Source: Candidatus Parcubacteria bacterium (GTDB lineage: Bacteria > Patescibacteriota > Minisyncoccia > UBA9983). Taken from it: a DNA stretch of 47,755 nucleotides. The translations under genes were made by a program, and so were the position numbers. The stretch is from positions 1-47,755 of the forward strand of contig QZIU01000017.1 of the NCBI GenBank assembly GCA_003599625.1, written 5' to 3'. Each line of letters starts with the position of its first letter. Within the stretch, counting starts at the first letter, position 1. The notes beneath the pieces are model-generated. The model was not told where the DNA came from and did not search any database. It worked only from the letters and a program-made list of their open reading frames with translations. Shown piece after piece: positions 9,178 to 46,452 of this stretch.

Positions 9178-9936
9178 CTAGTCAGGCCGAATATCCGAAA
9201 TAAGTCTTTCCACCTCTTCCACTATCCTCCTTAAAAGCTCCCTTAGCTGCTCCAATACCGGCAATAATTTTTCTCTATCGATCGGACCTCCGAAAACTTC
9301 ATTTATCTTCGCTATTGTTCTTGGCCCGGCTAACCCAAAGCCCGTGGTTTCCGGCGTTCCGGATGTTACAATATCGTATCTGATCTGAAATCTTTGGACT
9401 GCCTGAACGGTCAACGGACCATAGAAACCGGTAACCAGCCCTTCCGGATAAATAGTGGCGTCTCTAGCCAAAGTCATTTGCAAAATCCTGACTTGATCGG
9501 AAGTTTCCCCCACTCTAAACGGCCCCGTAACTATCTGCCTTGGCGCGCTTGAAACGCTCGAAAAGCTGGAAGCTGACGATGAAACCGAAGACACCGAGGA
9601 AGCGGAAGACATTGAGGAAACGCTTGAAGCGCTGCTCAAAGAAGAACTGACTGAGGAAAACGAGCTGGAGATAGAGCTCATTGAACTCATAGAACTCATA
9701 GAACTTGCCGATATGCTCGACATCGAACTTGCCGAACTGGAACTTAAAGAACTTAAGGAACTTAAGGAATAAGAAGATTGGGAACTGAAGCTGGAAAGAG
9801 AGGATGTTTGAGCCTGAGCGATCTGTCCGGGCAAGCCCAAAGGCGGATCGACTTTAAACAAATCGGCCGAAACAACCGTAATGAATCCCAAAAAAGAAAA
9901 AACGGTTATCGCATGAAAAATTATTTGCTTCATCAT
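9178..9936 (-). CDS. Secreted peptidoglycan-binding protein with Ser-rich linker
   Basis: The 252-residue product has an N-terminal signal sequence (MMKQIIFHAITVFSFLGFI and on), then a Ser-rich linker of about 85 residues. A peptidoglycan-binding-like domain (PF01471 type) follows at about 140-215: TSDQVRILQMTL, TIYPEGLVTGFYGPLTVQAV and RFQIRYDI are its visible landmarks. It ends in an acidic/basic helix (LLPVLEQLRELLRRIVEEVERL). The same domain wording recurs in the protein at 45508-46452. It probably attaches to the cell wall. The start was chosen at the first of two adjacent ATG codons; the second is equally possible. Confidence 0.85.
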   Translation of the reverse strand: MMKQIIFHAITVFSFLGFITVVSADLFKVDPPLGLPGQIAQAQTSSLSSFSSQSSYSLSSLSSLSSSSASSMSSISASSMSSMSSMSSISSSFSSVSSSLSSASSVSSMSSASSVSSVSSSASSFSSVSSAPRQIVTGPFRVGETSDQVRILQMTLARDATIYPEGLVTGFYGPLTVQAVQRFQIRYDIVTSGTPETTGFGLAGPRTIAKINEVFGGPIDREKLLPVLEQLRELLRRIVEEVERLISDIRPD

Positions 9937-21977: not shown

Positions 21978-23660
21978 TTAGAAAACTATATCCATACCCT
22001 CATCCATCGTCACGACCCTCGCGTTCTTTTCCTTAAGATAATCGACGATCTGTTGCAACACTTCCGGTGTCGTGGCGTATCTTGTACCGCTGTAGTCAAC
22101 CCGGTGAAAAACGATCACGGCCCATGTTCCGTTGGACATCGCCGAGTCTATCCAGCCTTTTGCTTCGGCAAATGCCGTATCCGATTCGACGGAAAAGCGG
22201 TTAAGCAGAAACCTGTTCGAGCCGCTGTCGTTGAAACCGTCTTGCGTTCTTCTGGCGCCCTTATATCCGGCCTCTTCCACCACAGCGACAACGCTTTCAT
22301 TGTAAGCCCCGAAAGGATAGGCGAAAGTAGTTACGGAATTCACCCCCGCCGCAAGCAGATCCTCCTTCGAGCCTATTATTTCGTCCCGCATCTCTTCGGT
22401 CGAAAGAATCGTCAAATTCGCGTGCGTTTTGGTATGAGAACCGATCTCGTGACCTTTTGCCTGCATGTCAAGCATCTGATCGATATTCACGTAAGTGGAA
22501 AAATCGAATCTTCCGCTGGAGATATACTGGGTGCTTTTCAAACCGGCGGCATTCAAGATCGGCAAGGCGTTCTGATAAGTGGTTATCCAGCCATCGTCGA
22601 AATTCAGACTGACCAGTCCGGAGGGGGCCGGAGAACTTGCGACTTCCCTGAGATCATACTTGTCCACTGTCAGACCGCCGACCTCTTTGATAAGGTGGAA
22701 AATGGTTAGAGAAGCTACTTCGTCCGGAATCTTAAAATCAACTTCGCTTTTCTTCCATGCGGAGGAAGCCGGGACTGTCGCCAAGTCCCTGTAAAACAAG
22801 GAGCCTGATTTTGTTCTGTATTGAACGGTCAAGTAGCTTAGCGCGTCCGACATCGAATAGTTGGTAAACCGGTAAGTCTTCCCGGGCGTTACCGCCACCT
22901 CCTTGAAATACCACTTGGCGTCGCCGCTCGTTCTGGAAGTCAGTTCCACTTTGGCGGCTTTACTTCCGTCAAAACCGGCTGTCGGATAAGTGAAAACGGC
23001 GGTATTCGTTCCCCATCGGCCTTTGAACCAGTCCTGTGGAGATGAAGAACTCCCGGCGATCTCAAGGGAAGGATTGGCGACTTTGTTATTCGGGTCGGAC
23101 GGCGCCGAAACAACCTCCGACAAATTATAATTGTCCACAGTCAAACTTCCGACCTGGTTGATAAGGTGAAAGATCGAGATCCCCGCCGTTCCGGCAGGAG
23201 CGGTAAACTCGGCGCTGCCAGTCTTCCAGCCGGAAGACGCGGACAGATTGGCCAGATCCGCATATTTATATGTCCCATCACTCATCTTATACCTTGCCGT
23301 TAAAACGGAGGGGATCGAACTCATATAGCTGTTGCTGAATTTATATGTCTTGCCTCCTCCGGCAGCCACCTCCTTGAAATACCACTTGGCATCGCCGCTC
23401 GTTCTTGAAGTCAGTTCCACTTTGGCGGCTTTGCTTCCGTCCGTTCCGGCCACCGGATAAGTAAATATGGCAGTGTTAGTTCCCCATCGGCCTTTGAACC
23501 AGTCCTGGGGCAAACCGTTTACTTCCGTTTCCAAGGAAGGATTGGAAACGAGGTTGGTTTGGGCAAGCGCGTTATTGCCAAAAAACAAAAATAAAGCCGC
23601 TCCTCCAAGGCAAGCCGCGAAAATGCCCGCCGCGGTTTTAAACTTTCTTGCAAATATCAT
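21978..23660 (-). CDS. Secreted polysaccharide deacetylase with two carbohydrate-binding-like repeats
   Basis: The 560-residue product has a signal sequence (about 1-34), then two homologous domains of about 150 residues. Each begins NPSLE and continues PQDWFKGRWGTNTA and DGSKAAKVELTSRTSGDAKW, resembling CBM4/9-type beta-sandwich modules. A NodB-type deacetylase domain follows (about 345-560) with metal and catalytic features: FDDGW, GHEIGSHTKTHANLT and the later FAYPFGAYN. It would remove acetyl groups from an extracellular amino-sugar polymer. It is the last gene of the exopolysaccharide operon, 5 bases after the preceding stop. The near-identical halves suggest a recent internal duplication. 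Confidence 0.92.
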   Translation of the reverse strand: MIFARKFKTAAGIFAACLGGAALFLFFGNNALAQTNLVSNPSLETEVNGLPQDWFKGRWGTNTAIFTYPVAGTDGSKAAKVELTSRTSGDAKWYFKEVAAGGGKTYKFSNSYMSSIPSVLTARYKMSDGTYKYADLANLSASSGWKTGSAEFTAPAGTAGISIFHLINQVGSLTVDNYNLSEVVSAPSDPNNKVANPSLEIAGSSSSPQDWFKGRWGTNTAVFTYPTAGFDGSKAAKVELTSRTSGDAKWYFKEVAVTPGKTYRFTNYSMSDALSYLTVQYRTKSGSLFYRDLATVPASSAWKKSEVDFKIPDEVASLTIFHLIKEVGGLTVDKYDLREVASSPAPSGLVSLNFDDGWITTYQNALPILNAAGLKSTQYISSGRFDFSTYVNIDQMLDMQAKGHEIGSHTKTHANLTILSTEEMRDEIIGSKEDLLAAGVNSVTTFAYPFGAYNESVVAVVEEAGYKGARRTQDGFNDSGSNRFLLNRFSVESDTAFAEAKGWIDSAMSNGTWAVIVFHRVDYSGTRYATTPEVLQQIVDYLKEKNARVVTMDEGMDIVF

Positions 23661-23665
23661 ATTAT

Positions 23666-24559
23666 TTATTCCCCTATTGAAATTAACTTATAATTATCAA
23701 ATTCGACATCCATAAAATCGGTTCTTATGCCGGCATAACCTGACTTCAAAAAGGCTTCTCCCCCGTAAGACAAGCCGTCGTCGAAGGCTTCGGTTGCCAG
23801 TGTCCATTTGCCGGTCTTGCCTTTGTCGACATAAAGCTTGATACTGACACCTCCGGCCTCATTCTTAATTTCGCTCCTCAGGCCTATCCAAGTGTTTCCT
23901 GGAATCAAGCTGGGATTAGTCTCTCTGTCATAGTCTCTCCCGGAAAAAAACTTTTCAGTCTGGCTGAACGTGTGATAGACTCCTCCTTTCTTCTTTTTGA
24001 TAACAGCGGATCCATCAACTCTGATTCCCGCGTAATAAAGATTGTCGCTGTCCGAATATCTGCTCATAAGAAGAAGGCCGTTCGATTCGTTGCGGTTCGG
24101 ACTGTCGCTGAAGTTGCCTTTCGTTACCCTGAAATAAGCTTGCTGGCTGTAATCGAGCCACTTGCTTCTTCCCACCAGCCGGAAAATATTCTGCGGATGA
24201 TAACCGTTGTCCGTATCCTTCGGATTGCTCTGGGCATAAAGAACTCTCCATTTTGAATATTTCCAAAGCTTGCCTTGAATGGTTTTGCCCTTTCCACCCT
24301 CGGAGATCATCAGGGCGCCCGAATTGAGCCACCAGTAAGGGCTTTTGCTTTCTCCGTCTGCGGCTTCGGGCAATCTTCCGTCCAGAGAAAAATCATAGAG
24401 ATACGGAGAAACGAGCGGAGCCGGACGCGCGCTTCCGGTCGACATGTCAAAAGCATCCAGTTCGTCGGCTATCCCGTGAAAATCCAACGAAGCTTCGGCA
24501 ATGGCGGCCAAAACAAGAACAAGCAAAGTAATCAAAAAAGCAAAAATGATCTTTCTCAT
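23666..24559 (-). CDS. Secreted LamG/concanavalin-like protein
   Basis: The 297-residue product starts with a signal sequence (KIIFAFLITLLVLVLAAIAEA). The mature part is beta-rich with Trp and Tyr clusters (SPYWWLNSGALMISEGG, SKWLDYSQQAYFRV, YYAGIRVDGSAVIKKKKGGVY, NTWIGLRSEIKN, KSGYAGIRTDFMDVEFDNYK). This is typical of concanavalin A-like jelly-roll domains that bind or cleave polysaccharides. I see no catalytic motif that names an activity, so it may be a lectin, a lyase or an export helper. Its start overlaps the upstream deacetylase stop by 4 bases and the next deacetylase starts 5 bases after its stop, so it is tightly embedded in the exopolysaccharide operon. Confidence 0.75.
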   Translation of the reverse strand: MRKIIFAFLITLLVLVLAAIAEASLDFHGIADELDAFDMSTGSARPAPLVSPYLYDFSLDGRLPEAADGESKSPYWWLNSGALMISEGGKGKTIQGKLWKYSKWRVLYAQSNPKDTDNGYHPQNIFRLVGRSKWLDYSQQAYFRVTKGNFSDSPNRNESNGLLLMSRYSDSDNLYYAGIRVDGSAVIKKKKGGVYHTFSQTEKFFSGRDYDRETNPSLIPGNTWIGLRSEIKNEAGGVSIKLYVDKGKTGKWTLATEAFDDGLSYGGEAFLKSGYAGIRTDFMDVEFDNYKLISIGE

Positions 24560-26151
24560 TTAAGTTCGTCTATTGTCAGTCCGGTAATTTCGTATTCGCT
24601 GTTGTTTTTTTGAGGGTCCCAGGACTTCACCCCGAAGCCTCCCCGCTGAACAGAGAGTTTGTCGCTTATTAAGCCTCTTTCCTCGTTGACTATGCAGACC
24701 AGATTCGATCCTTTCGCCAAAACAGACAACTTCAAACCATCTCCACTTCTGTCAAAAGTCATTTTTTCCGCGGCAAGGATTTTTTCCTTTCCTTCTATTT
24801 TTTCTTTTATTCTCAACCACCCTCCCGATAAATCGCAGGACGCGTAATTATCGTTATCCTGGAACCTCACAATAGCGGAAACAGATTTTCCCTTCAGCCA
24901 GGACAAACTAAGGCTCGCCGCGTAATCCGTCCAGCCGTGCGTGCCGTCCAACAGAGCAAAAGTTCCTTCAAGATCGTTTCCCGAAGCTGCTTTCAGCCGG
25001 CCGTCGCCGAATTCGAGGCGGCCCCAGCCCTGGAGCCAGTTCTTCTTGGCGGGATCGAAGTCTTCGACATACGGCAAGGCCTTGTTTTGTCCTGCCTCCA
25101 ACTTCGCCAACAGTTCCTGCCCGCTCCAGGCGGGATCAACATCTATCCTTTTGACGTAAAACATGTCTCTTCCCGGCACATTGGCGCTGAACCCGTTGCC
25201 CCCCCATGTCTGATAAAAGGCCATGGGGTAGATTTTTTTGACCGTATCGAAGACGATCGGCTTGGCCTCTTCGGCCGGAATGTTGATAGACTCCTGCCCG
25301 TAATCGCCGAAGGGAAAGGCGAAAGCGTAAGCCTCGACACCAACTCCCTTCTCAAGCTCTTCCTTGGCCTCCAAAAAGTCGCCGTAAATACGGTTTTTAA
25401 ATTCCTCCATGGTCTCCAGCCTGTTCCGCTTTTCCAGCCATATCTTGTTGCTGTAGAAATGTCCTTCGGTTCCATCGGGAGAAATTTTGTACAAGTTGTG
25501 CCCTCCTTTGGTATGGGGCTGGAGATCCCACCGGCCGCTGTTCTTCATCTCCAGCAATTCTTTGTCGTTAAGATAATATTTATTGTTAAGCTCGGTGAGC
25601 GAATAGACGGTAATCACGAATTGAACGGCTTCGTAATCCAAGGCCTTCAGAATGGGGTCGGTCGGATAATAACTGTCTTTCCTGCCGTCGTCGAAAGTCA
25701 AAAGGAATGATTTTTCCGGCAGCTCTTTTTCCCCTTTCACGAATTTGTGAAAGTCCTCCAGATTCACCGTCTCGTAACCGGCTTTCTTGAGGGTGAACAT
25801 CTGCTCGATGAAGTCCTTTCTCAAAATATTCTTGCCGTCCGGCTCCTCCAGAAGGCCGTGATAAAGAAGCACGGGCACCGATCCGGCCTTTTCTTTTTTC
25901 TCGTACTTTTGATTTTTATCGGCCATGATCTTCACAAAAGCGTCCAGCTTGTTGTCCGCCGAACCGTTAAACTCCGAGAAGTCCGCCTGATATTTGAAAG
26001 TTTTCAAATTATTGGAAGCCGCGGCGATATAAAACGGAAATTTATAAAACCCAAAGCTCAGGGCGGGAAACGTCCAAAAAGCCGAACCGCTCAGAAGAAT
26101 GGTCAGTATGGCTATCTTCGCTATTTTATTTGGTGAAAAATCTCCGAACAT
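24556..26151 (-). CDS. Polysaccharide deacetylase with C-terminal jelly-roll domain
   Basis: The 531-residue product has an N-terminal membrane anchor or signal (KIAKIAILTILLSGSAFWTF). A NodB-like domain follows from about residue 90: SVPVLLYHGLLEEPDGKN, FLLTFDDGRKDSYYPT (catalytic and metal Asp pair), WDLQPHTKGGHNLY with His residues, and AYAFAFPFGDYG. The domain order YHG then FDDG then PFGDYG matches the PgaB/IcaB branch that deacetylates poly-N-acetylglucosamine. The last 160 residues form a beta-rich domain (ALPYVEDFDPAKKNW and on) similar to the next protein. It begins 4 bases after the glycosyltransferase stop, supporting joint function in polymer synthesis and modification. Confidence 0.9.
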   Translation of the reverse strand: MFGDFSPNKIAKIAILTILLSGSAFWTFPALSFGFYKFPFYIAAASNNLKTFKYQADFSEFNGSADNKLDAFVKIMADKNQKYEKKEKAGSVPVLLYHGLLEEPDGKNILRKDFIEQMFTLKKAGYETVNLEDFHKFVKGEKELPEKSFLLTFDDGRKDSYYPTDPILKALDYEAVQFVITVYSLTELNNKYYLNDKELLEMKNSGRWDLQPHTKGGHNLYKISPDGTEGHFYSNKIWLEKRNRLETMEEFKNRIYGDFLEAKEELEKGVGVEAYAFAFPFGDYGQESINIPAEEAKPIVFDTVKKIYPMAFYQTWGGNGFSANVPGRDMFYVKRIDVDPAWSGQELLAKLEAGQNKALPYVEDFDPAKKNWLQGWGRLEFGDGRLKAASGNDLEGTFALLDGTHGWTDYAASLSLSWLKGKSVSAIVRFQDNDNYASCDLSGGWLRIKEKIEGKEKILAAEKMTFDRSGDGLKLSVLAKGSNLVCIVNEERGLISDKLSVQRGGFGVKSWDPQKNNSEYEITGLTIDELK

Positions 26152-26155
26152 ATTT

Positions 26156-27433
26156 TTATCTTGTTCCCCATTTGGGATCCCGTATGGTTAAAAGCGCCCA
26201 CGGCAACTGCCATATAAGCATTAGGCTCACCACCCAGAAGGCCACCACCGAGGAAAGCCACGATTTGCCGCCCTCTATGCTGTAAAATATTCCGTGAAGA
26301 AGAAGCATCAGAAACAATCCCGCCAGATAAACTATCGGCCAATTTCCCGTGGCTGCCGGATACCACGCCACGGCCCGGAAGAAAACGAGCGGCGACGTGA
26401 AGGCGATGAATATGTAAGAATAGAACGACAAAGCCGCCAGGGGATTTTTCTTCCACATGAAGTTGCTGGCAATGAGCGTTTCTCTGACCCAGGATTTTTT
26501 CCACCTTTGCTGCTGCCTGATATATTTCCTTAAAGTGTCCGGCACCACCGTCCAAGCTTTGGCTTCGTCCGAGTAAACAGCTTTGTATTTTTTGATGATC
26601 TTATTCGTAAGGCTCCTGTCATCGCCGTAGGTGCACTGCACCCCCAGAAACTTTTGCTTCAGCCACGGCTCCAGGAATTCCATCAGATATTCCTTTCTGT
26701 AAGCGGAACAACATCCCGGACAGCAGGTCACCGCGCCAAAAAGAGACTCGGCGGATTTGTATATCTTGAACGCGACATAATATCTGAGCGCCTGCATTTT
26801 GGTGAGCAGATTCGTATCCTTGTTGTAAACATCCGTATGCCCCGACACGGCCCCCACTTTCGGATCGGAGAAATATTTCACCAGGTTCTTAACGCAATCC
26901 TTGTCCACGAAACTATCCGAGTCCACGAATATGATGATATCGTGAGAGGCTCTTTTAATGCCTTCAGCCATTCCTTCTCTTTTGCCCCTGTTTTTCTTCC
27001 AGTCAATTATGTCGATTCTTATTTCCCCGCCGATCTGCCTCTTCGCCCGGAGCATCTCCCACAAGGTGTTGTCGGTAGAACCGTCGTTTATGGCAATAAC
27101 CTCGATATTGGTTTTCGGATAATCGACCCTGTTGAACCTCATGATCGTTTCCGCGATGTTGTCCTGCTCATTTTTTGCCGGAACAACGAAAGTCACGGAG
27201 GGCTGATAATTTTCGTCCATGGCGACAGGTCGGTGGAAGTAAGCAAAAAGAAAGCGTGAGAGTATGAAGCCCGTCACGATCATGCTGTATGCCTGGAAAA
27301 ACAAATTATTCTGGTAATTATCTATCGTGGCGATCTTGATCAAAAAAATCAGATACACAATAAACAAAAAAATAAACCAACCGCCCAGGTTCTTGAAAGC
27401 TTCGCCTATTCTTTTAATTCTCTCGCTTAACAT
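26156..27433 (-). CDS. Processive family 2 glycosyltransferase (polysaccharide synthase)
   Basis: The 425-residue membrane enzyme has two N-terminal hydrophobic helices (about 18-65), a GT2 catalytic domain and several C-terminal helices. Motifs of processive synthases are in order: VVPAKNEQDNIAETI, INDGSTDNT, the DxD-like VDSDSF, TYGDDRSLT with the catalytic base Asp, and QQQRW, which binds the growing chain. This pattern is shared by IcaA/PgaC, NodC, hyaluronan and chitin synthases. With two deacetylases downstream, a poly-GlcNAc-like product is the first guess; the upstream UDP-sugar dehydrogenase suggests a uronic acid may also be included. The gene follows the dehydrogenase after 59 AT-rich bases. 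Confidence 0.92.
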   Translation of the reverse strand: MLSERIKRIGEAFKNLGGWFIFLFIVYLIFLIKIATIDNYQNNLFFQAYSMIVTGFILSRFLFAYFHRPVAMDENYQPSVTFVVPAKNEQDNIAETIMRFNRVDYPKTNIEVIAINDGSTDNTLWEMLRAKRQIGGEIRIDIIDWKKNRGKREGMAEGIKRASHDIIIFVDSDSFVDKDCVKNLVKYFSDPKVGAVSGHTDVYNKDTNLLTKMQALRYYVAFKIYKSAESLFGAVTCCPGCCSAYRKEYLMEFLEPWLKQKFLGVQCTYGDDRSLTNKIIKKYKAVYSDEAKAWTVVPDTLRKYIRQQQRWKKSWVRETLIASNFMWKKNPLAALSFYSYIFIAFTSPLVFFRAVAWYPAATGNWPIVYLAGLFLMLLLHGIFYSIEGGKSWLSSVVAFWVVSLMLIWQLPWALLTIRDPKWGTR

Positions 27434-27492
27434 ATTTTTTGTTTTCTATAAATTTTTTCCTAAAATTTTAATTTTGATTTTTAAATTTTTAA

Positions 27493-28776
27493 TTATCTTC
27501 CGATTCCTCTATACGCCAACCCCGCGCGAATGAACTTTTCTTTCGGCAGACAATTTCTTCCGTCTATCACGGCGCTCACTTTATGGTTTAAAAAATAATC
27601 AGGAGTCAGTTTTTTAAATGCTTTATGCGCGGTGGCAATAATAACGGCTTGCGATCCTTCGATTGCTTCATCCAGCGAAGCAGCGGATTGATCCGGCACG
27701 AACGGATCATAAACGGAGACATTTGCGCCTTTTTCTTTCAAAATTTTTACGATCTCGAAGGCGGGACTTTCCCGTTGATCGCCTATTTCCGGCTTGTAGG
27801 CCAGGCCCAAAACCGCCACCTTGGCGCCCGCGATGTTTACCCCTTTCGTGTTCAGGGAAGCGATCGCCTGATCCACCGTAAAGCAAGGCATCTGATTATT
27901 TATTTTCCTGGCCAAAGAAAGAAAATCATGTTGAAATCCGTTAGTTCTGGCATACTCGATCAAATAATACGGATCTACCGGGATGCAATGACCGCCGACG
28001 CCGCAGCCGGGATAATGAGTCATGAAGGCAAAAGGTTTTGTGGAAGCTCCCTCGATGACATCGATTATGTCTATGCCAAGCTTCGAAAATGACATCGCCA
28101 GCTCATTCACGAAAGCGATATTTATATCCCTGAAGGAATTTTCCACCACCTTTACCGCTTCGGCTTCCTTCAAAGAATTCATCGGTTTCACCTCGGCTGA
28201 GATGATGGAACGATAAAAATCGACCGCGCGCTTCAGACTTTTTTTATCCAATCCTCCGACTACTCGAGGAATATTCTTTACCGTCCACTTTTTATCTCCC
28301 GGGTTTATCCTCTCCGGACAGTGCGCGAGCATGAAATCTTTTCCCGCTTTCAATCCGGAACCTTTTTCCAGGATCGGCATGACCACATTTTCCGTGATGC
28401 CGGGATTGACCGTGGATTCCAGGATCACGAGCTGTTTTTTCTGAAGAAAAGGCGCGATCTCGATACAGGCTCCCTCCACAGGCTCCAAATTGGGCATATG
28501 GTTTTCGTAAACCGGAGTCGGCACGCAAATGACTATAATATCCGCGTCCTTTACCTTTAAAAAATCCGAAGTCGCTTCAATGCGCGTTTCGGCCATATCC
28601 TTCGCCAAGTCGCTGTCGACGAAAGGACATTGCTTATTCTGGATCATTTCAACTTTTTTCTTGTCTATATCAATCCCGATGACGCGATAACCTTTTCTTT
28701 CCGCCAAAAGAGCCAGAGGAAGTCCCACGTATCCCAAACCTACCACAGCTAAAGTTTTTTGATCATTTTGCCTCAT
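27493..28776 (-). CDS. UDP-N-acetyl-sugar 6-dehydrogenase (WecC/WbpA type)
   Basis: The 427-residue enzyme oxidises C6 of a UDP-sugar to a carboxylate in two NAD-dependent steps. It has the N-terminal Rossmann motif VVGLGYVGLPLALLAE, the NAD region VPTPVYENHMPNL, the substrate loop with the catalytic Cys in GCGVGGHCIPVDPYYL, and the C-terminal UDP-binding domain LGLAYKPEIGDQRESPAFEI. The GGHCIPVDP form is characteristic of UDP-GlcNAc or UDP-ManNAc dehydrogenases rather than UDP-glucose dehydrogenases. It is the first gene of the exopolysaccharide operon and would supply UDP-acetamido-uronate. Exact substrate cannot be settled from sequence alone. Confidence 0.9.
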   Translation of the reverse strand: MRQNDQKTLAVVGLGYVGLPLALLAERKGYRVIGIDIDKKKVEMIQNKQCPFVDSDLAKDMAETRIEATSDFLKVKDADIIVICVPTPVYENHMPNLEPVEGACIEIAPFLQKKQLVILESTVNPGITENVVMPILEKGSGLKAGKDFMLAHCPERINPGDKKWTVKNIPRVVGGLDKKSLKRAVDFYRSIISAEVKPMNSLKEAEAVKVVENSFRDINIAFVNELAMSFSKLGIDIIDVIEGASTKPFAFMTHYPGCGVGGHCIPVDPYYLIEYARTNGFQHDFLSLARKINNQMPCFTVDQAIASLNTKGVNIAGAKVAVLGLAYKPEIGDQRESPAFEIVKILKEKGANVSVYDPFVPDQSAASLDEAIEGSQAVIIATAHKAFKKLTPDYFLNHKVSAVIDGRNCLPKEKFIRAGLAYRGIGR

Positions 28777-29720: not shown

Positions 29721-30437
29721 ATGACCGAAACAAAACTTATCAAAAAAGAAGAGGTGGCCGAGAATACCATGGCCTTTTATTTCGCGAAGCCGGCGAGTTT
29801 TGAATTTGTCCCCGGACAGCACATTACCCTGACACTGATAAATCCCCCGGAAACGGATGATGAGGGAAACTCAAGATATTTTTCCATAATAACGGCCCCT
29901 CATGAGGAACACTTAGGCATTGCCACGAGAATAAGAGATACCGCGCTCAAAAGATCGCTTAAAAATTTGCCCGCGGGTTCCCGAGTAAAAATAGACGGGC
30001 CTTACGGCCAGTTCAATCTGCAAAAAAATTCCGGCCGGCCGGCTGTTTTTTTGATAGGCGGCATCGGCATAACCCCCGTCTTTAGCATCTTAAAACACGC
30101 GGCCAAAGAAAAACTGCCGCACAAAATATTTCTTTTCTATTCCAACCGCCGTCCGGAAGACGCGCCATTCTTGAGAGAGTTGCAAAATTTGGAAAAGGAA
30201 AATCCCAACTTCAAGCTGATCGCCACAATGACGCAAGTGGAAAGATCGCCAAAAACATGGTCGGGCGAAACCGGCTATGTAACGAAAGAAATGATCCGAA
30301 AATATATTCCGGATCTGAATTCCCCCATTTTCTATATGTCCGGCCCGCCGCAAATGGTAAAGGCGATGAGGGAACTGCTTGAGAAAGGGGGGGTCGACGA
30401 AACGAGAATGAAGTTTGAGGAGTTCGCGGGATACTGA
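29721..30437 (+). CDS. FAD/NAD(P)-binding oxidoreductase (ferredoxin reductase family)
   Basis: The 238-residue protein has the ferredoxin-NADP reductase fold: the FAD domain ends with SRYFSIITAP (the RxYS flavin motif), then KIDGPYGQF, and the nucleotide domain begins FLIGGIGITPVFSI, with the late MSGPPQMVKAM motif and an aromatic C-terminus (FAGY). No fused ferredoxin or globin is present, so it needs an outside partner. It would pass electrons between NAD(P)H and a redox protein. It is convergent with the NirK-like gene (22 bases apart), which suggests but does not prove a link. Similar stand-alone reductases occur as parts of hydroxylase or dihydroorotate dehydrogenase systems. Confidence 0.92.
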   Translation: MTETKLIKKEEVAENTMAFYFAKPASFEFVPGQHITLTLINPPETDDEGNSRYFSIITAPHEEHLGIATRIRDTALKRSLKNLPAGSRVKIDGPYGQFNLQKNSGRPAVFLIGGIGITPVFSILKHAAKEKLPHKIFLFYSNRRPEDAPFLRELQNLEKENPNFKLIATMTQVERSPKTWSGETGYVTKEMIRKYIPDLNSPIFYMSGPPQMVKAMRELLEKGGVDETRMKFEEFAGY

Positions 30438-30459: not shown

Positions 30460-31695
30460 TCAGTGCCCCGCGCTTTTCCCGTCCTCGACTCCGTCGAATA
30501 TCTCTTTGTTTTCCTCTCCTTCGGCTTCCAGGATTCCCCAAGCTCCCCTGTCCAGTCGCGCCAAAGCATGGTCGACCAAAACATATCTTCCGGGGGCGTC
30601 TATTTTGAATTCGACTATGCTGGCGCCGCCAGCTGGGATGGTTGTTGTCTGAACATTCTTGTTCGGCTCGGAGCCGATAGCAGCTTCGGGATAAACATTG
30701 TCAAAAATCTCTCCTATGACATGGAAAGAAGAAAGGAGATTAACTCCCCCGTTTCCCACATAAAGCCTGACAGTGTCTCCCACTTTCGCTTTCATTTTTC
30801 CGTTCAAGGATTCTGTTTTGCCATTGAAAACTATATATTCCGGATGTCCGTCAAGCATTTTTTTGGCGTCGAATATCTGCAAGCCTTTTTTACCAAGAGC
30901 GCCTGAACTGTAAAATTCGCCCTGCATTATATAGAACTCCTTATCCACTTCTGGCAAGCCCTCCTCCGGCTCGATCAGGATCATGCCATACATGCCATGC
31001 GTCATATGGGCGGCCACGTTTGGATGGGCGCAGTGGTAGACATACAAACCCGGATTAAGGGCTTTGAACGAAAAAGTTTTGGACTCCCCCGGATCGACAT
31101 TCGAAACAATAGCTCCTCCGCCGGGACCGTTTACCGCGTGAAGGTCTATGTTGTGCATGTGAAGAGAAGTCGGATGGTTTTTGATCGTTACGTTGACCTT
31201 GTCTCCGGCTCTCGCCCTTATGAGCGGCCCGGGTACCTGGCCGTTGTATGTCCAGTAATTAAAAAATACTCCCGGAGCCATTTCCCCTATCACTTCTTTT
31301 GTCTCTATTTCTACATTTACTTCAGCCGGGACTTTTCTTCCAATGGCCCCGGGCACATCGGAAGGATCTTTGGCTATGTCCGCTTTTTCGTATTTTTTAA
31401 TGTTCTTCAGGAATGTGAAAACATTTTTAAGGGGCAGTTGCGGCCCCGCGGCGGGACCGAAAGTCTTCAAAAACACCGGCAACTCAAGGCTCGGCATGCC
31501 TTTAGTGGAGAAAAAGAAAAGAAAAACGCCGAGAGCGATCACTGCTCCGGGTATTATTATTTTGTAGAACATGCCAAAATGCTTTCCGATCGCGTAAAGA
31601 ATTATGAAAAGAAGAGCAAAAGCCGCTATGGTTAAAATAGCAAGACCAATGGTTTGCAAAAGCGGGATCCTCAGAAGAAAGAATAACTCAAACAT
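30460..31695 (-). CDS. nirK: NirK-like copper nitrite reductase with membrane anchor
   Basis: The 411-residue product has two hydrophobic N-terminal segments (about 8-36 and 43-62), then two cupredoxin domains. The NirK ligand pattern is readable: His181 in HMHNIDLH (type 1), His186 (type 2), His221 and Cys222 in VYHCAH (type 2 and type 1), His230 and Met235 in AAHMTHGM (type 1), and His325 in SSFHVIG (type 2). The active-site Asp184 is also present. This fits reduction of nitrite to nitric oxide outside the membrane. Two-domain multicopper oxidases are the alternative, but the HNIDLHAVNGPGGG segment is NirK-like. It starts 3 bases after the ybaB stop. Confidence 0.9.
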   Translation of the reverse strand: MFELFFLLRIPLLQTIGLAILTIAAFALLFIILYAIGKHFGMFYKIIIPGAVIALGVFLFFFSTKGMPSLELPVFLKTFGPAAGPQLPLKNVFTFLKNIKKYEKADIAKDPSDVPGAIGRKVPAEVNVEIETKEVIGEMAPGVFFNYWTYNGQVPGPLIRARAGDKVNVTIKNHPTSLHMHNIDLHAVNGPGGGAIVSNVDPGESKTFSFKALNPGLYVYHCAHPNVAAHMTHGMYGMILIEPEEGLPEVDKEFYIMQGEFYSSGALGKKGLQIFDAKKMLDGHPEYIVFNGKTESLNGKMKAKVGDTVRLYVGNGGVNLLSSFHVIGEIFDNVYPEAAIGSEPNKNVQTTTIPAGGASIVEFKIDAPGRYVLVDHALARLDRGAWGILEAEGEENKEIFDGVEDGKSAGH

Positions 31696-45507: not shown

Positions 45508-46452
45508 TTACTGGCCAAGTTTGGCTTGTAAAGCCTTCACTTGCTCCAATAATTGATTGATGAGCTGCTGAAGAGCTTGGACTTGCTGCTGTTTGGATGA
45601 CTCGGAAAGCGCGGTTGAGCCTGATGAAGCATGCGCCGAAACTGTCGAGGAGCCATAAACCTCCATGATCTTCTTTCTTGTCGCCGGACCGACGAAGCCG
45701 ACCGGATCTATGCCGTATTTCTTTTGAAATCTGATGACGGCATTTCTGGTGGCCGGGCCGTAATATCCGGTGGCCAAGCCTTCCGGATATATGGTCTTAT
45801 CCACGGCCAATGCCTGTTGGAGAGCCTTGACCTCGCCATCCTTCATGCCGTACTTCAATTGTTTGGTAAGAGTAAGTCCGGACGTCGCCCCGCTAACAGC
45901 GGAAGAGGTGGTTTGGGCTGCTTGCGTTCCGGAAGTTTGGGCAGCTACGCTTGAGGCGGAACTTGTCTGCTGCGAAGCAGATGATACGGACGAAGCGGAA
46001 GCTGTGCCTGGAATAACGGTATAAACAGGAGTCGGAACTGCGGATCCCCCGCCACCGCCGCCGCCGACTGATCCCGGAGAACCGCCGCCCGGAAGAGCGC
46101 AAGTGGATGTGGACGGAGTTACCGTTACCGTCGTAGCCGAACCGGAAGACATCGAGAGTGTTATCTCAGACTGCTGGCTGGTGCAAGTGGAAGAAGTCGT
46201 GTATGTATTCGGGCTGGCGGTCAAAGCCTTTCGGTCAGCGGAAGTAACTTTGATCGAGGCTCCCGCCGAAAGAACGACGGAGAAGTTGGTATCATTAACG
46301 GTTATAGAGTCCAAAGTGGCGTCTCCGCTTACGACCAAACTTATTCCATTTACGCTTATTGTCGTCGAATCGCCCACCGTCACATCCAGAGCGGCGAAGG
46401 CCAAAACCGGAGTGATCAGGAAAGATAGCAGAATCGTTAAATAAGTTTTCAT
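45508..46452 (-). CDS. Secreted peptidoglycan-binding protein with Ser/Gly linker
   Basis: The 314-residue product has a signal sequence (TYLTILLSFLITPVLAFA), then a beta-rich domain (about 20-120, LDVTVGDSTTISVNGISLVV and on) with two Cys in STCTSQQSE and STCALPGG. A glycine run, a Ser/Ala/Thr linker and a peptidoglycan-binding-like domain follow (about 200-265: YGMKDGEVKALQQALAVDK, YPEGLATGYYGPATRNAVI, FQKKYGIDPVGFVGPATRKK). It ends with a Gln/Leu-rich coiled coil (VQALQQLINQLLEQVKALQ). It is related to the protein at 9178-9936 in its wall-binding domain. It probably sits at the cell surface beside the repeat protein encoded upstream. Confidence 0.88.
   Translation of the reverse strand: MKTYLTILLSFLITPVLAFAALDVTVGDSTTISVNGISLVVSGDATLDSITVNDTNFSVVLSAGASIKVTSADRKALTASPNTYTTSSTCTSQQSEITLSMSSGSATTVTVTPSTSTCALPGGGSPGSVGGGGGGGSAVPTPVYTVIPGTASASSVSSASQQTSSASSVAAQTSGTQAAQTTSSAVSGATSGLTLTKQLKYGMKDGEVKALQQALAVDKTIYPEGLATGYYGPATRNAVIRFQKKYGIDPVGFVGPATRKKIMEVYGSSTVSAHASSGSTALSESSKQQQVQALQQLINQLLEQVKALQAKLGQ

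What the first reader, a model, noticed from the sequence alone, without database searches (positions are those of the whole stretch)
21978..28776. Five-gene exopolysaccharide operon in a reduced genome
A WecC/WbpA-type UDP-sugar dehydrogenase, a processive GT2 synthase, two NodB-type deacetylases and a jelly-roll protein are read in one direction with 4-base overlaps or gaps of 4-59 bases. The set suggests a partly deacetylated amino-sugar polymer that may also contain uronic acid, perhaps used for host-cell attachment. The duplicated carbohydrate-binding modules of the last enzyme would bind the polymer.
Basis: partly seen in the sequence, partly recalled or inferred. Interest (0 to 1): 0.6.

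Follow-up and report, generated by a model that had tools for sequence, protein, structure and literature searches.

The report
Exopolysaccharide gene cassette in tiny bacteria
Five neighbouring genes of a very small, probably host-dependent bacterium look like a kit for making, trimming and holding on to a sugar polymer outside the cell, and versions of the same kit, sometimes with an enzyme that cuts animal-type acidic sugar polymers, turn up in scattered relatives.

Summary
In detail: five minus-strand genes at 21978-28776, with spacings of 59, 4, -4 and 5 bases. It is a genuine conserved cassette, not chance. A second copy lies elsewhere in this 0.906 Mb Parcubacteria-type genome, and related cassettes occur in scattered relatives and a few distant MAGs. 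The core is a membrane GT2 synthase of the hyaluronan-synthase/NodC/chitin-synthase superfamily (forming its own clade, with the WGTR end), a PgaB-like N-deacetylase whose hydrolase domain is replaced by a CBM66-like jelly roll, and the 'jelly-roll protein', a CBM66-fold family that matches no Pfam model and is tightly linked to the synthase. The window copy adds a nucleotide-sugar dehydrogenase and a second deacetylase with two CBM4/9-like modules. In five related loci the deacetylase is fused to a heparinase II/III-like lyase; GlmS or GlmU-like genes adjoin others. I read it as a synthase-dependent system that extrudes an amino-sugar polymer, partly N-deacetylates it and holds it at the surface. 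In this copy the polymer probably also contains a uronic acid; that step is inferred. Host attachment is untested. New variant of a known kind; interest about 0.5.

The parts
27493..28776 (-). Nucleotide-sugar 6-dehydrogenase, WecC/WbpA/TviB-type half of the family; keeps the GGHC catalytic-cysteine segment
   Evidence: TIGR03026 431.5 bits; 4r16 5e-79
26156..27433 (-). Membrane GT2 processive synthase, HAS/NodC/chitin-synthase superfamily, own clade
   Evidence: (hyaluronan synthase 7sp7 1e-36)
26159..26170 (-). Codons for the C-terminal WGTR shared with hyaluronan synthase, not with NodC
24556..26151 (-). PgaB-like NodB N-deacetylase with C-terminal CBM66-like domain
25087..25896 (-). Deacetylase domain; D155, H213, H218 invariant in 9 of 9 aligned; fold match to PgaB N-terminal domain Z 27.4
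24559..25071 (-). CBM66-like jelly roll in the place of PgaB's hydrolase domain, Z 19.7
23666..24559 (-). P4: secreted or membrane-anchored jelly-roll protein, CBM66 fold with conserved extra segments; no Pfam or NCBIfam match
23669..24424 (-). Conserved P4 domain
21978..23660 (-). Secreted protein: two CBM4/9-like modules then NodB deacetylase
23115..23558 (-). CBM4/9-like module a
22635..23114 (-). CBM4/9-like module b, 62% identical to a
21981..22640 (-). NodB (CE4) domain with FDDG, HxxxH, PFG and a late FH segment
29070..29092 (-). Terminator-like stem and T run upstream of the set (terminator scan found no excess over shuffles)

Best explanation
The five genes form a synthase-dependent exopolysaccharide system. 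Shown by computation: conserved gene order, domain content, folds and retained active-site motifs. Inferred: (1) the GT2 polymerises UDP-GlcNAc, probably with a uronic-acid nucleotide sugar made by the adjacent dehydrogenase, and passes the chain out through its own membrane part; (2) the PgaB-like enzyme, held to the chain by its CBM66-like domain, removes some acetyl groups outside the membrane; (3) the last gene's deacetylase, held by two CBM4/9-like modules, does the same at other positions or chain lengths; (4) P4 is a lectin-type module for this polymer that keeps it at the cell surface, since relatives fuse P4 to a peptidoglycan-binding domain, repeat it in tandem, or append it to the processing enzymes. 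The dehydrogenase substrate is more likely UDP-GlcNAc or UDP-glucose than UDP-ManNAc, as no UDP-GlcNAc 2-epimerase passes cut-off in this genome.
For: GT2: best solved relatives are hyaluronan synthases (1e-36); D, DSD, GDDR, QxxRW and WGTR motifs kept. PgaB-like deacetylase: Z 27.4 to E. coli PgaB, metal D155/H213/H218 invariant in 9 of 9. P4: CBM66 Z 18.2, rmsd 1.9 over 158 residues. Linkage: in 93 relatives P4 and a close GT2 (E<=1e-37) occur in the same 8 genomes; of 31 distinct P4 loci 22 hold GT2 plus a NodB-type gene, 4 have a NodB but lie at contig ends, 5 have P4 alone (DUF2334 in L056 counted as NodB-type; L070 P4 match weak). Precursors: GlmS follows the L053 cassette, GlmU-like genes follow L049 and L058; the own genome has GlmS, GlmM-like and GlmU-like genes. 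Uronic acid: dehydrogenase adjoins GT2 in W, L040, L041, L052, L053, L055, 59-72% alike; heparinase II/III fusions in L054, L055, L058, L069, L070 (Pfam on four; similarity for L054) with invariant motifs. Anchor: P4 fused to PG_binding_1, three P4 domains in a PKD-repeat protein. WecB-type epimerase only 18.9 bits, cut-off 30.6.
Against: Four of 8 P4 genomes (G038, G043, G046, G060) show no dehydrogenase hit at E<=1e-60, so uronic acid is not required everywhere. A 65%-identical dehydrogenase in G044 stands alone, outside any cassette. G149 has GT2 and NodB without P4. The GT2 is not in the HAS/NodC clade on my tree (100/99, with long branches), so the sugars it joins cannot be read off. The heparinase is absent from this genome. 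No wet-lab data.
Confidence: 0.6

Rival explanations
1. The polymer is a plain GlcNAc homopolymer (chitin- or PNAG-like) that becomes chitosan-like by deacetylation; the dehydrogenase serves another glycan and is only a neighbour.
For: Pfam Chitin_synth_2 88.5 bits and a CCPGCCSAYR acceptor segment unlike HAS GGP/SGP; PgaB-like deacetylase; half of the P4 genomes have no close dehydrogenase; GH18 genes in two related loci, L084 and the Paenibacillus region.
Against: Dehydrogenase directly adjoins GT2 in six loci spread over three GT2 subclades; the only two strong full-length dehydrogenases found in this genome are those of its two cassettes; heparinase II/III fusions in five loci.
Confidence: 0.25
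2. True hyaluronan or heparosan (GlcA-GlcNAc), i.e. a hasAB-like operon.
For: Best solved matches are hyaluronan synthases, WGTR end; heparinase III-like (HepC-like) fusion in L055; UDP-glucose-dehydrogenase-type gene upstream in L058; L093/L094 plasmid pairs of dehydrogenase plus GT2, about 36% like P0002, with a UDP-glucose-type dehydrogenase in L093.
Against: The window dehydrogenase is of the WecC/WbpA half, not the UDP-glucose half; the GT2 lies outside the HAS/NodC/Lactococcus clade.
Confidence: 0.1
3. Nod-factor-like short chitooligosaccharide or a wall-modifying set rather than a long polymer.
For: NodC is the best NCBIfam model (178.9 bits) and NodB domains accompany it.
Against: Far below the NodC cut-off (550); ends WGTR, not WLSR/WLAR as in the two NodC proteins aligned; several polymer-binding modules make little sense for a 4-5 sugar product (inference).
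Confidence: 0.07
4. P4 is an enzyme (lyase or hydrolase of the polymer), not a lectin.
For: 18 invariant columns among 22 sequences, many polar (Q123, N124, R156, R167, R279, D281, D284); jelly-roll lyases and hydratases appear among Foldseek matches.
Against: Closest fold is a CBM; fused like a CBM to enzymes and to PG_binding_1, and repeated up to three times in one protein; kept in loci that already have a heparinase-like domain.
Confidence: 0.2

Closest known systems
Pga/Ica poly-N-acetylglucosamine system (PgaC, PgaB)
   Same: GT2 synthase with a PgaB-like N-deacetylase domain, fold Z 27.4
   Different: PgaB's C-terminal hydrolase domain is replaced by a CBM66-like jelly roll; GT2 far below the PgaC cut-off (137 vs 422 bits); dehydrogenase and P4 added
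Hyaluronan synthase operons (hasAB type)
   Same: Synthase best matched by HAS structures, WGTR end, adjacent nucleotide-sugar dehydrogenase
   Different: Separate GT2 clade, WecC/WbpA-type dehydrogenase, deacetylases and CBMs present
Rhizobial NodC/NodB
   Same: Same GT2 superfamily and NodB fold
   Different: Scores far below NodC cut-off; different C-terminal motif
CBM66 (Bacillus subtilis SacC levan-binding module; ligand recalled)
   Same: Fold of P4 and of the C-terminal part of NodB 1, Z 18.2 and 19.7
   Different: 19% and 15% identity; P4 has extra conserved segments; different gene context
Heparinase II/III (HepC-type)
   Same: N-terminal part of fusions in five related loci
   Different: Fused to NodB; absent from the window's genome

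Membership tests
PNAG (Pga) system | PgaB-type deacetylase domain with metal ligands D/H/H | tested here: met
PNAG (Pga) system | PgaB C-terminal glycoside hydrolase domain | tested here: not met
   residues 361-531 model as a CBM66-like jelly roll
PNAG (Pga) system | PgaC synthase above equivalog cut-off | tested here: not met
   137.1 bits, cut-off 422.3
PNAG (Pga) system | PgaA porin or PgaD partner | not tested
   no such gene among the five; genome not searched for them
Hyaluronan synthase | GT2 motifs and C-terminal WGTR | tested here: met
Hyaluronan synthase | falls in the HAS clade | tested here: inconclusive
   outside at 100/99, but HAS rows are partial and on long branches
Hyaluronan synthase | makes GlcA-GlcNAc polymer | not testable with these tools
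   needs enzyme assay
NodC | TIGR04242 cut-off | tested here: not met
   178.9 bits, cut-off 550
Nucleotide-sugar dehydrogenase (TIGR03026) | subfamily cut-off | tested here: met
   431.5 bits, cut-off 189.8
UDP-ManNAc dehydrogenase (WecC) | equivalog cut-off, and a UDP-GlcNAc 2-epimerase in the genome | tested here: not met
   255.9 bits, cut-off 459; PF02350 only 18.9 bits, cut-off 30.6, in a 95.6% complete genome
CE4 / NodB deacetylase (PF01522) | FDDG, paired-His and P(F/Y)G motifs | tested here: met
   both genes
CBM66 | CBM66 fold | tested here: met
CBM66 | sequence-level membership / fructan binding | not testable with these tools
   no Pfam match for P4; ligand unknown
CBM4/9 (PF02018) | Pfam cut-off | tested here: met
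   module b only, 27.9 bits, cut-off 25.9

The most novel reading that the evidence does not exclude
Scattered Patescibacteria carry a horizontally mobile cassette for a glycosaminoglycan-like polymer (amino sugar plus uronic acid, partly N-deacetylated), with its own lectin family (P4) that ties the chain to the cell wall and, in some lineages, a built-in heparinase-like enzyme that trims or releases it. It would be a capsule or tether of ultrasmall episymbionts made by a synthase clade distinct from HAS, NodC and PgaC.
Probability: 0.33. Interest if true: 0.75.

Novelty: new variant of a known kind. Interest (0 to 1): 0.5.

Why it matters
Patescibacteria are thought to live on other cells with few biosynthetic pathways (recalled). 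A conserved polymer system that this genome holds twice is a concrete candidate for how such a cell builds a surface layer, and each step can be tested with purified proteins. P4 is a conserved family absent from Pfam with a predictable binding target, and the heparinase-NodB fusions would be new tools if active on uronic-acid amino-sugar polymers.

Tried and rejected
P4 in plasmids, phages and viral contigs: no match. P4 profile against PDB sequences: only one chance-level hit. Pfam on the 22 P4 proteins: LysM2_NFP in two members and two single weak families, none shared. Terminator scan: no excess over shuffles; promoter-like sites 17 vs 8.6 expected, not used. A WecB-type epimerase in the own genome: below cut-off. 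Heparinase in the own genome: none. I first thought the dehydrogenase was confined to cassettes; the control found a 65% relative outside any cassette in G044 and 48-55% relatives in other genomes, so I dropped that claim beyond the own genome. At E<=1e-20 seven further relatives have more distant GT2s without P4. In the 379-genome phylum sample P4 is in 4, GT2 at E<=1e-34 in 7, both in 3. Remote GT2 loci L105, L106, L107 have no NodB or P4. CBM66 being the top fold does not exclude other jelly-roll families. Literature: searches listed no paper whose title or abstract start describes this cassette (listings and starts of abstracts only). One passage read in PMC6064768 mentions a hyaluronan synthase annotation unique to Amazon Parcubacteria MAGs.
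Full report
WHAT IS THERE. Five ORFs lie on the minus strand at 21978-28776 with spacings 59, 4, -4 and 5 bases. In transcription order: a nucleotide-sugar dehydrogenase, a GT2 synthase, a NodB deacetylase, a jelly-roll protein (P4) and a second NodB protein with two CBM4/9-like modules. The genome is 905,833 bases in 35 contigs, 95.56% complete. A related genome of the same class, G060, appears to be Candidatus Parcubacteria SURF_37, since its contig has the same length and matching coordinates as that record.

ACTIVE SITES. The GT2 keeps the NDGST, RGKR, DSD, GDDR, QQQRW and C-terminal WGTR segments; the two NodC proteins compared end WLSR and WLAR, and the two hyaluronan synthases end WGTR and WGT (the Xenopus segment stops there). 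The first NodB has TFDDG and H213/H218, invariant in 9 of 9 aligned relatives; the second has DDG, HxxxH, PxG and a late H in 6 of 6. The dehydrogenase keeps GGHCIPVDP.

FOLDS. P4 modelled with 22 sequences (pLDDT 89.4, pTM 0.81) best matches CBM66 of B. subtilis (Z 18.2, rmsd 1.9 over 158; Foldseek). The first NodB protein (pLDDT 82.6) matches PgaB over residues 85-355 (Z 27.4) and CBM66 over 361-531 (Z 19.7). A profile comparison of P4 with that C-terminal domain gives probability 91%, E 1.1e-6 over 88 columns.

A CONSERVED CASSETTE. Searching 93 relatives, P4 is in 8 and close GT2s (E<=1e-37) are in the same 8; at E<=1e-20 seven more genomes carry distant GT2s without P4. A scan of 84,980 species genomes found 19 loci of P4, mostly Parcubacteria and relatives, with one Anaerolineales, one Actinomycetota and two Pacearchaeota-labelled MAG contigs. 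Over 31 distinct loci (duplicates removed), 22 hold GT2 plus a NodB-type gene in the same neighbourhood; 4 have a NodB-type gene but lie at contig ends; 5 have P4 alone, of which L060, L062 and L085 lie on short or cut contigs. In these counts the DUF2334 gene of L056 is counted as NodB-type and L070 has only a weak P4 match. In a 379-genome phylum sample P4 is in 4 and GT2 (E<=1e-34) in 7, both in 3; G149 has GT2 and NodB without P4. The cassette is patchy. Own copy 1 and copy 2 are 41% identical in GT2 and fall in different subclades, while the same-genus genome G001 carries only the second type of GT2; this suggests transfer or old duplication with loss.

WHAT THE POLYMER MAY BE. Amino sugar: GT2 superfamily, PgaB-like deacetylase, GlmS after the L053 cassette and GlmU-like genes after L049 and L058. 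The own genome has GlmS (846.7 bits) and GlmM-like and GlmU-like genes. Uronic acid: a dehydrogenase adjoins GT2 in six loci (W, L040, L041, L052, L053, L055; in L052 it is split in two frames) over three GT2 subclades; cassette copies are 59-72% alike. Heparinase II/III fused to NodB occurs in five loci, L054, L055, L058, L069, L070, with NHG, ENSPYYH, YRTxHSD and HNTxVVDG invariant in 5 of 5. The heparinase part of L055 is closest to HepC models but below their cut-offs. Against: half of the P4 genomes lack a close dehydrogenase, and the own genome has no heparinase. The dehydrogenase belongs to the WecC/WbpA half, but no UDP-GlcNAc 2-epimerase passes cut-off, which argues for UDP-GlcNAc or UDP-glucose as its substrate (inference).

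P4 AS A LECTIN. P4 is fused to PG_binding_1 through a serine-rich linker in L041 (same genus), repeated three times in a 1665-aa PKD protein of L066 and twice in L048, and appended to heparinase-NodB in L058. This is how CBMs are used, so I prefer binding over catalysis, while 18 invariant columns leave an enzyme possible. The window itself has two proteins with the same kind of serine-rich linker plus YPEG-GYYGP/GFYGP tail (9178-9936 and 45508-46452).

MECHANISM. The synthase polymerises and extrudes the chain; the two deacetylases, held by binding modules, expose amines outside the membrane (each of P0003, P0004 and P0005 has a hydrophobic N-terminal segment); P4 holds the chain. Shown: sequence, fold and linkage. 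Inferred: sugars, secretion, binding, role.

PLACE AMONG KNOWN SYSTEMS. It works like synthase-dependent systems such as Pga or Has, but is a member of neither by the tests made: not PgaC or NodC by cut-off, PgaB's hydrolase domain replaced, and GT2 outside the HAS/NodC clade with long-branch caveats.

Noticed in passing
window 30460-31695 (-) and 29721-30437 (+): A cupredoxin protein resembling NirK-type copper nitrite reductase (named from reading the sequence, no search) next to a ferredoxin-reductase-like gene.
   Followed up: no
window 9178-9936 and 45508-46452 (-): Two secreted proteins with serine-rich linkers and a peptidoglycan-binding-like tail; the same kind of tail is fused to P4 in the same-genus locus L041.
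   Followed up: partly
G000 contig 10, 14798-19917 (L040 6796-11924): Second paralogous cassette in the same genome: dehydrogenase, GT2, NodB, P4; GT2 41%, dehydrogenase 68% identical.
   Followed up: yes
L105 and L106 (G378, G313): A more distant GT2 set: a dehydrogenase-like ORF directly upstream of GT2, and in L105 a GlmU-like ORF downstream, without NodB or P4; possibly a hasAB-like operon in Patescibacteria.
   Followed up: partly
L093, L094 (Lactococcus and Enterococcus faecium plasmids): Dehydrogenase plus GT2 pairs; in L093 a UDP-glucose-dehydrogenase-type gene with a NodC/HAS-like GT2, annotated only as glycosyltransferase.
   Followed up: partly
L087 3682-5485 (G000 contig 15): NeuB-like and CMP-sugar-synthetase-like genes (read by eye) in the same genome, i.e. 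a possible nonulosonic acid locus.
   Followed up: no
L044 6300-7502 and 11510-16285: A GH6 glycosyl hydrolase and a 1591-aa GSDH/PA14/PKD protein carrying CBMs like those of the window flank this cassette.
   Followed up: partly
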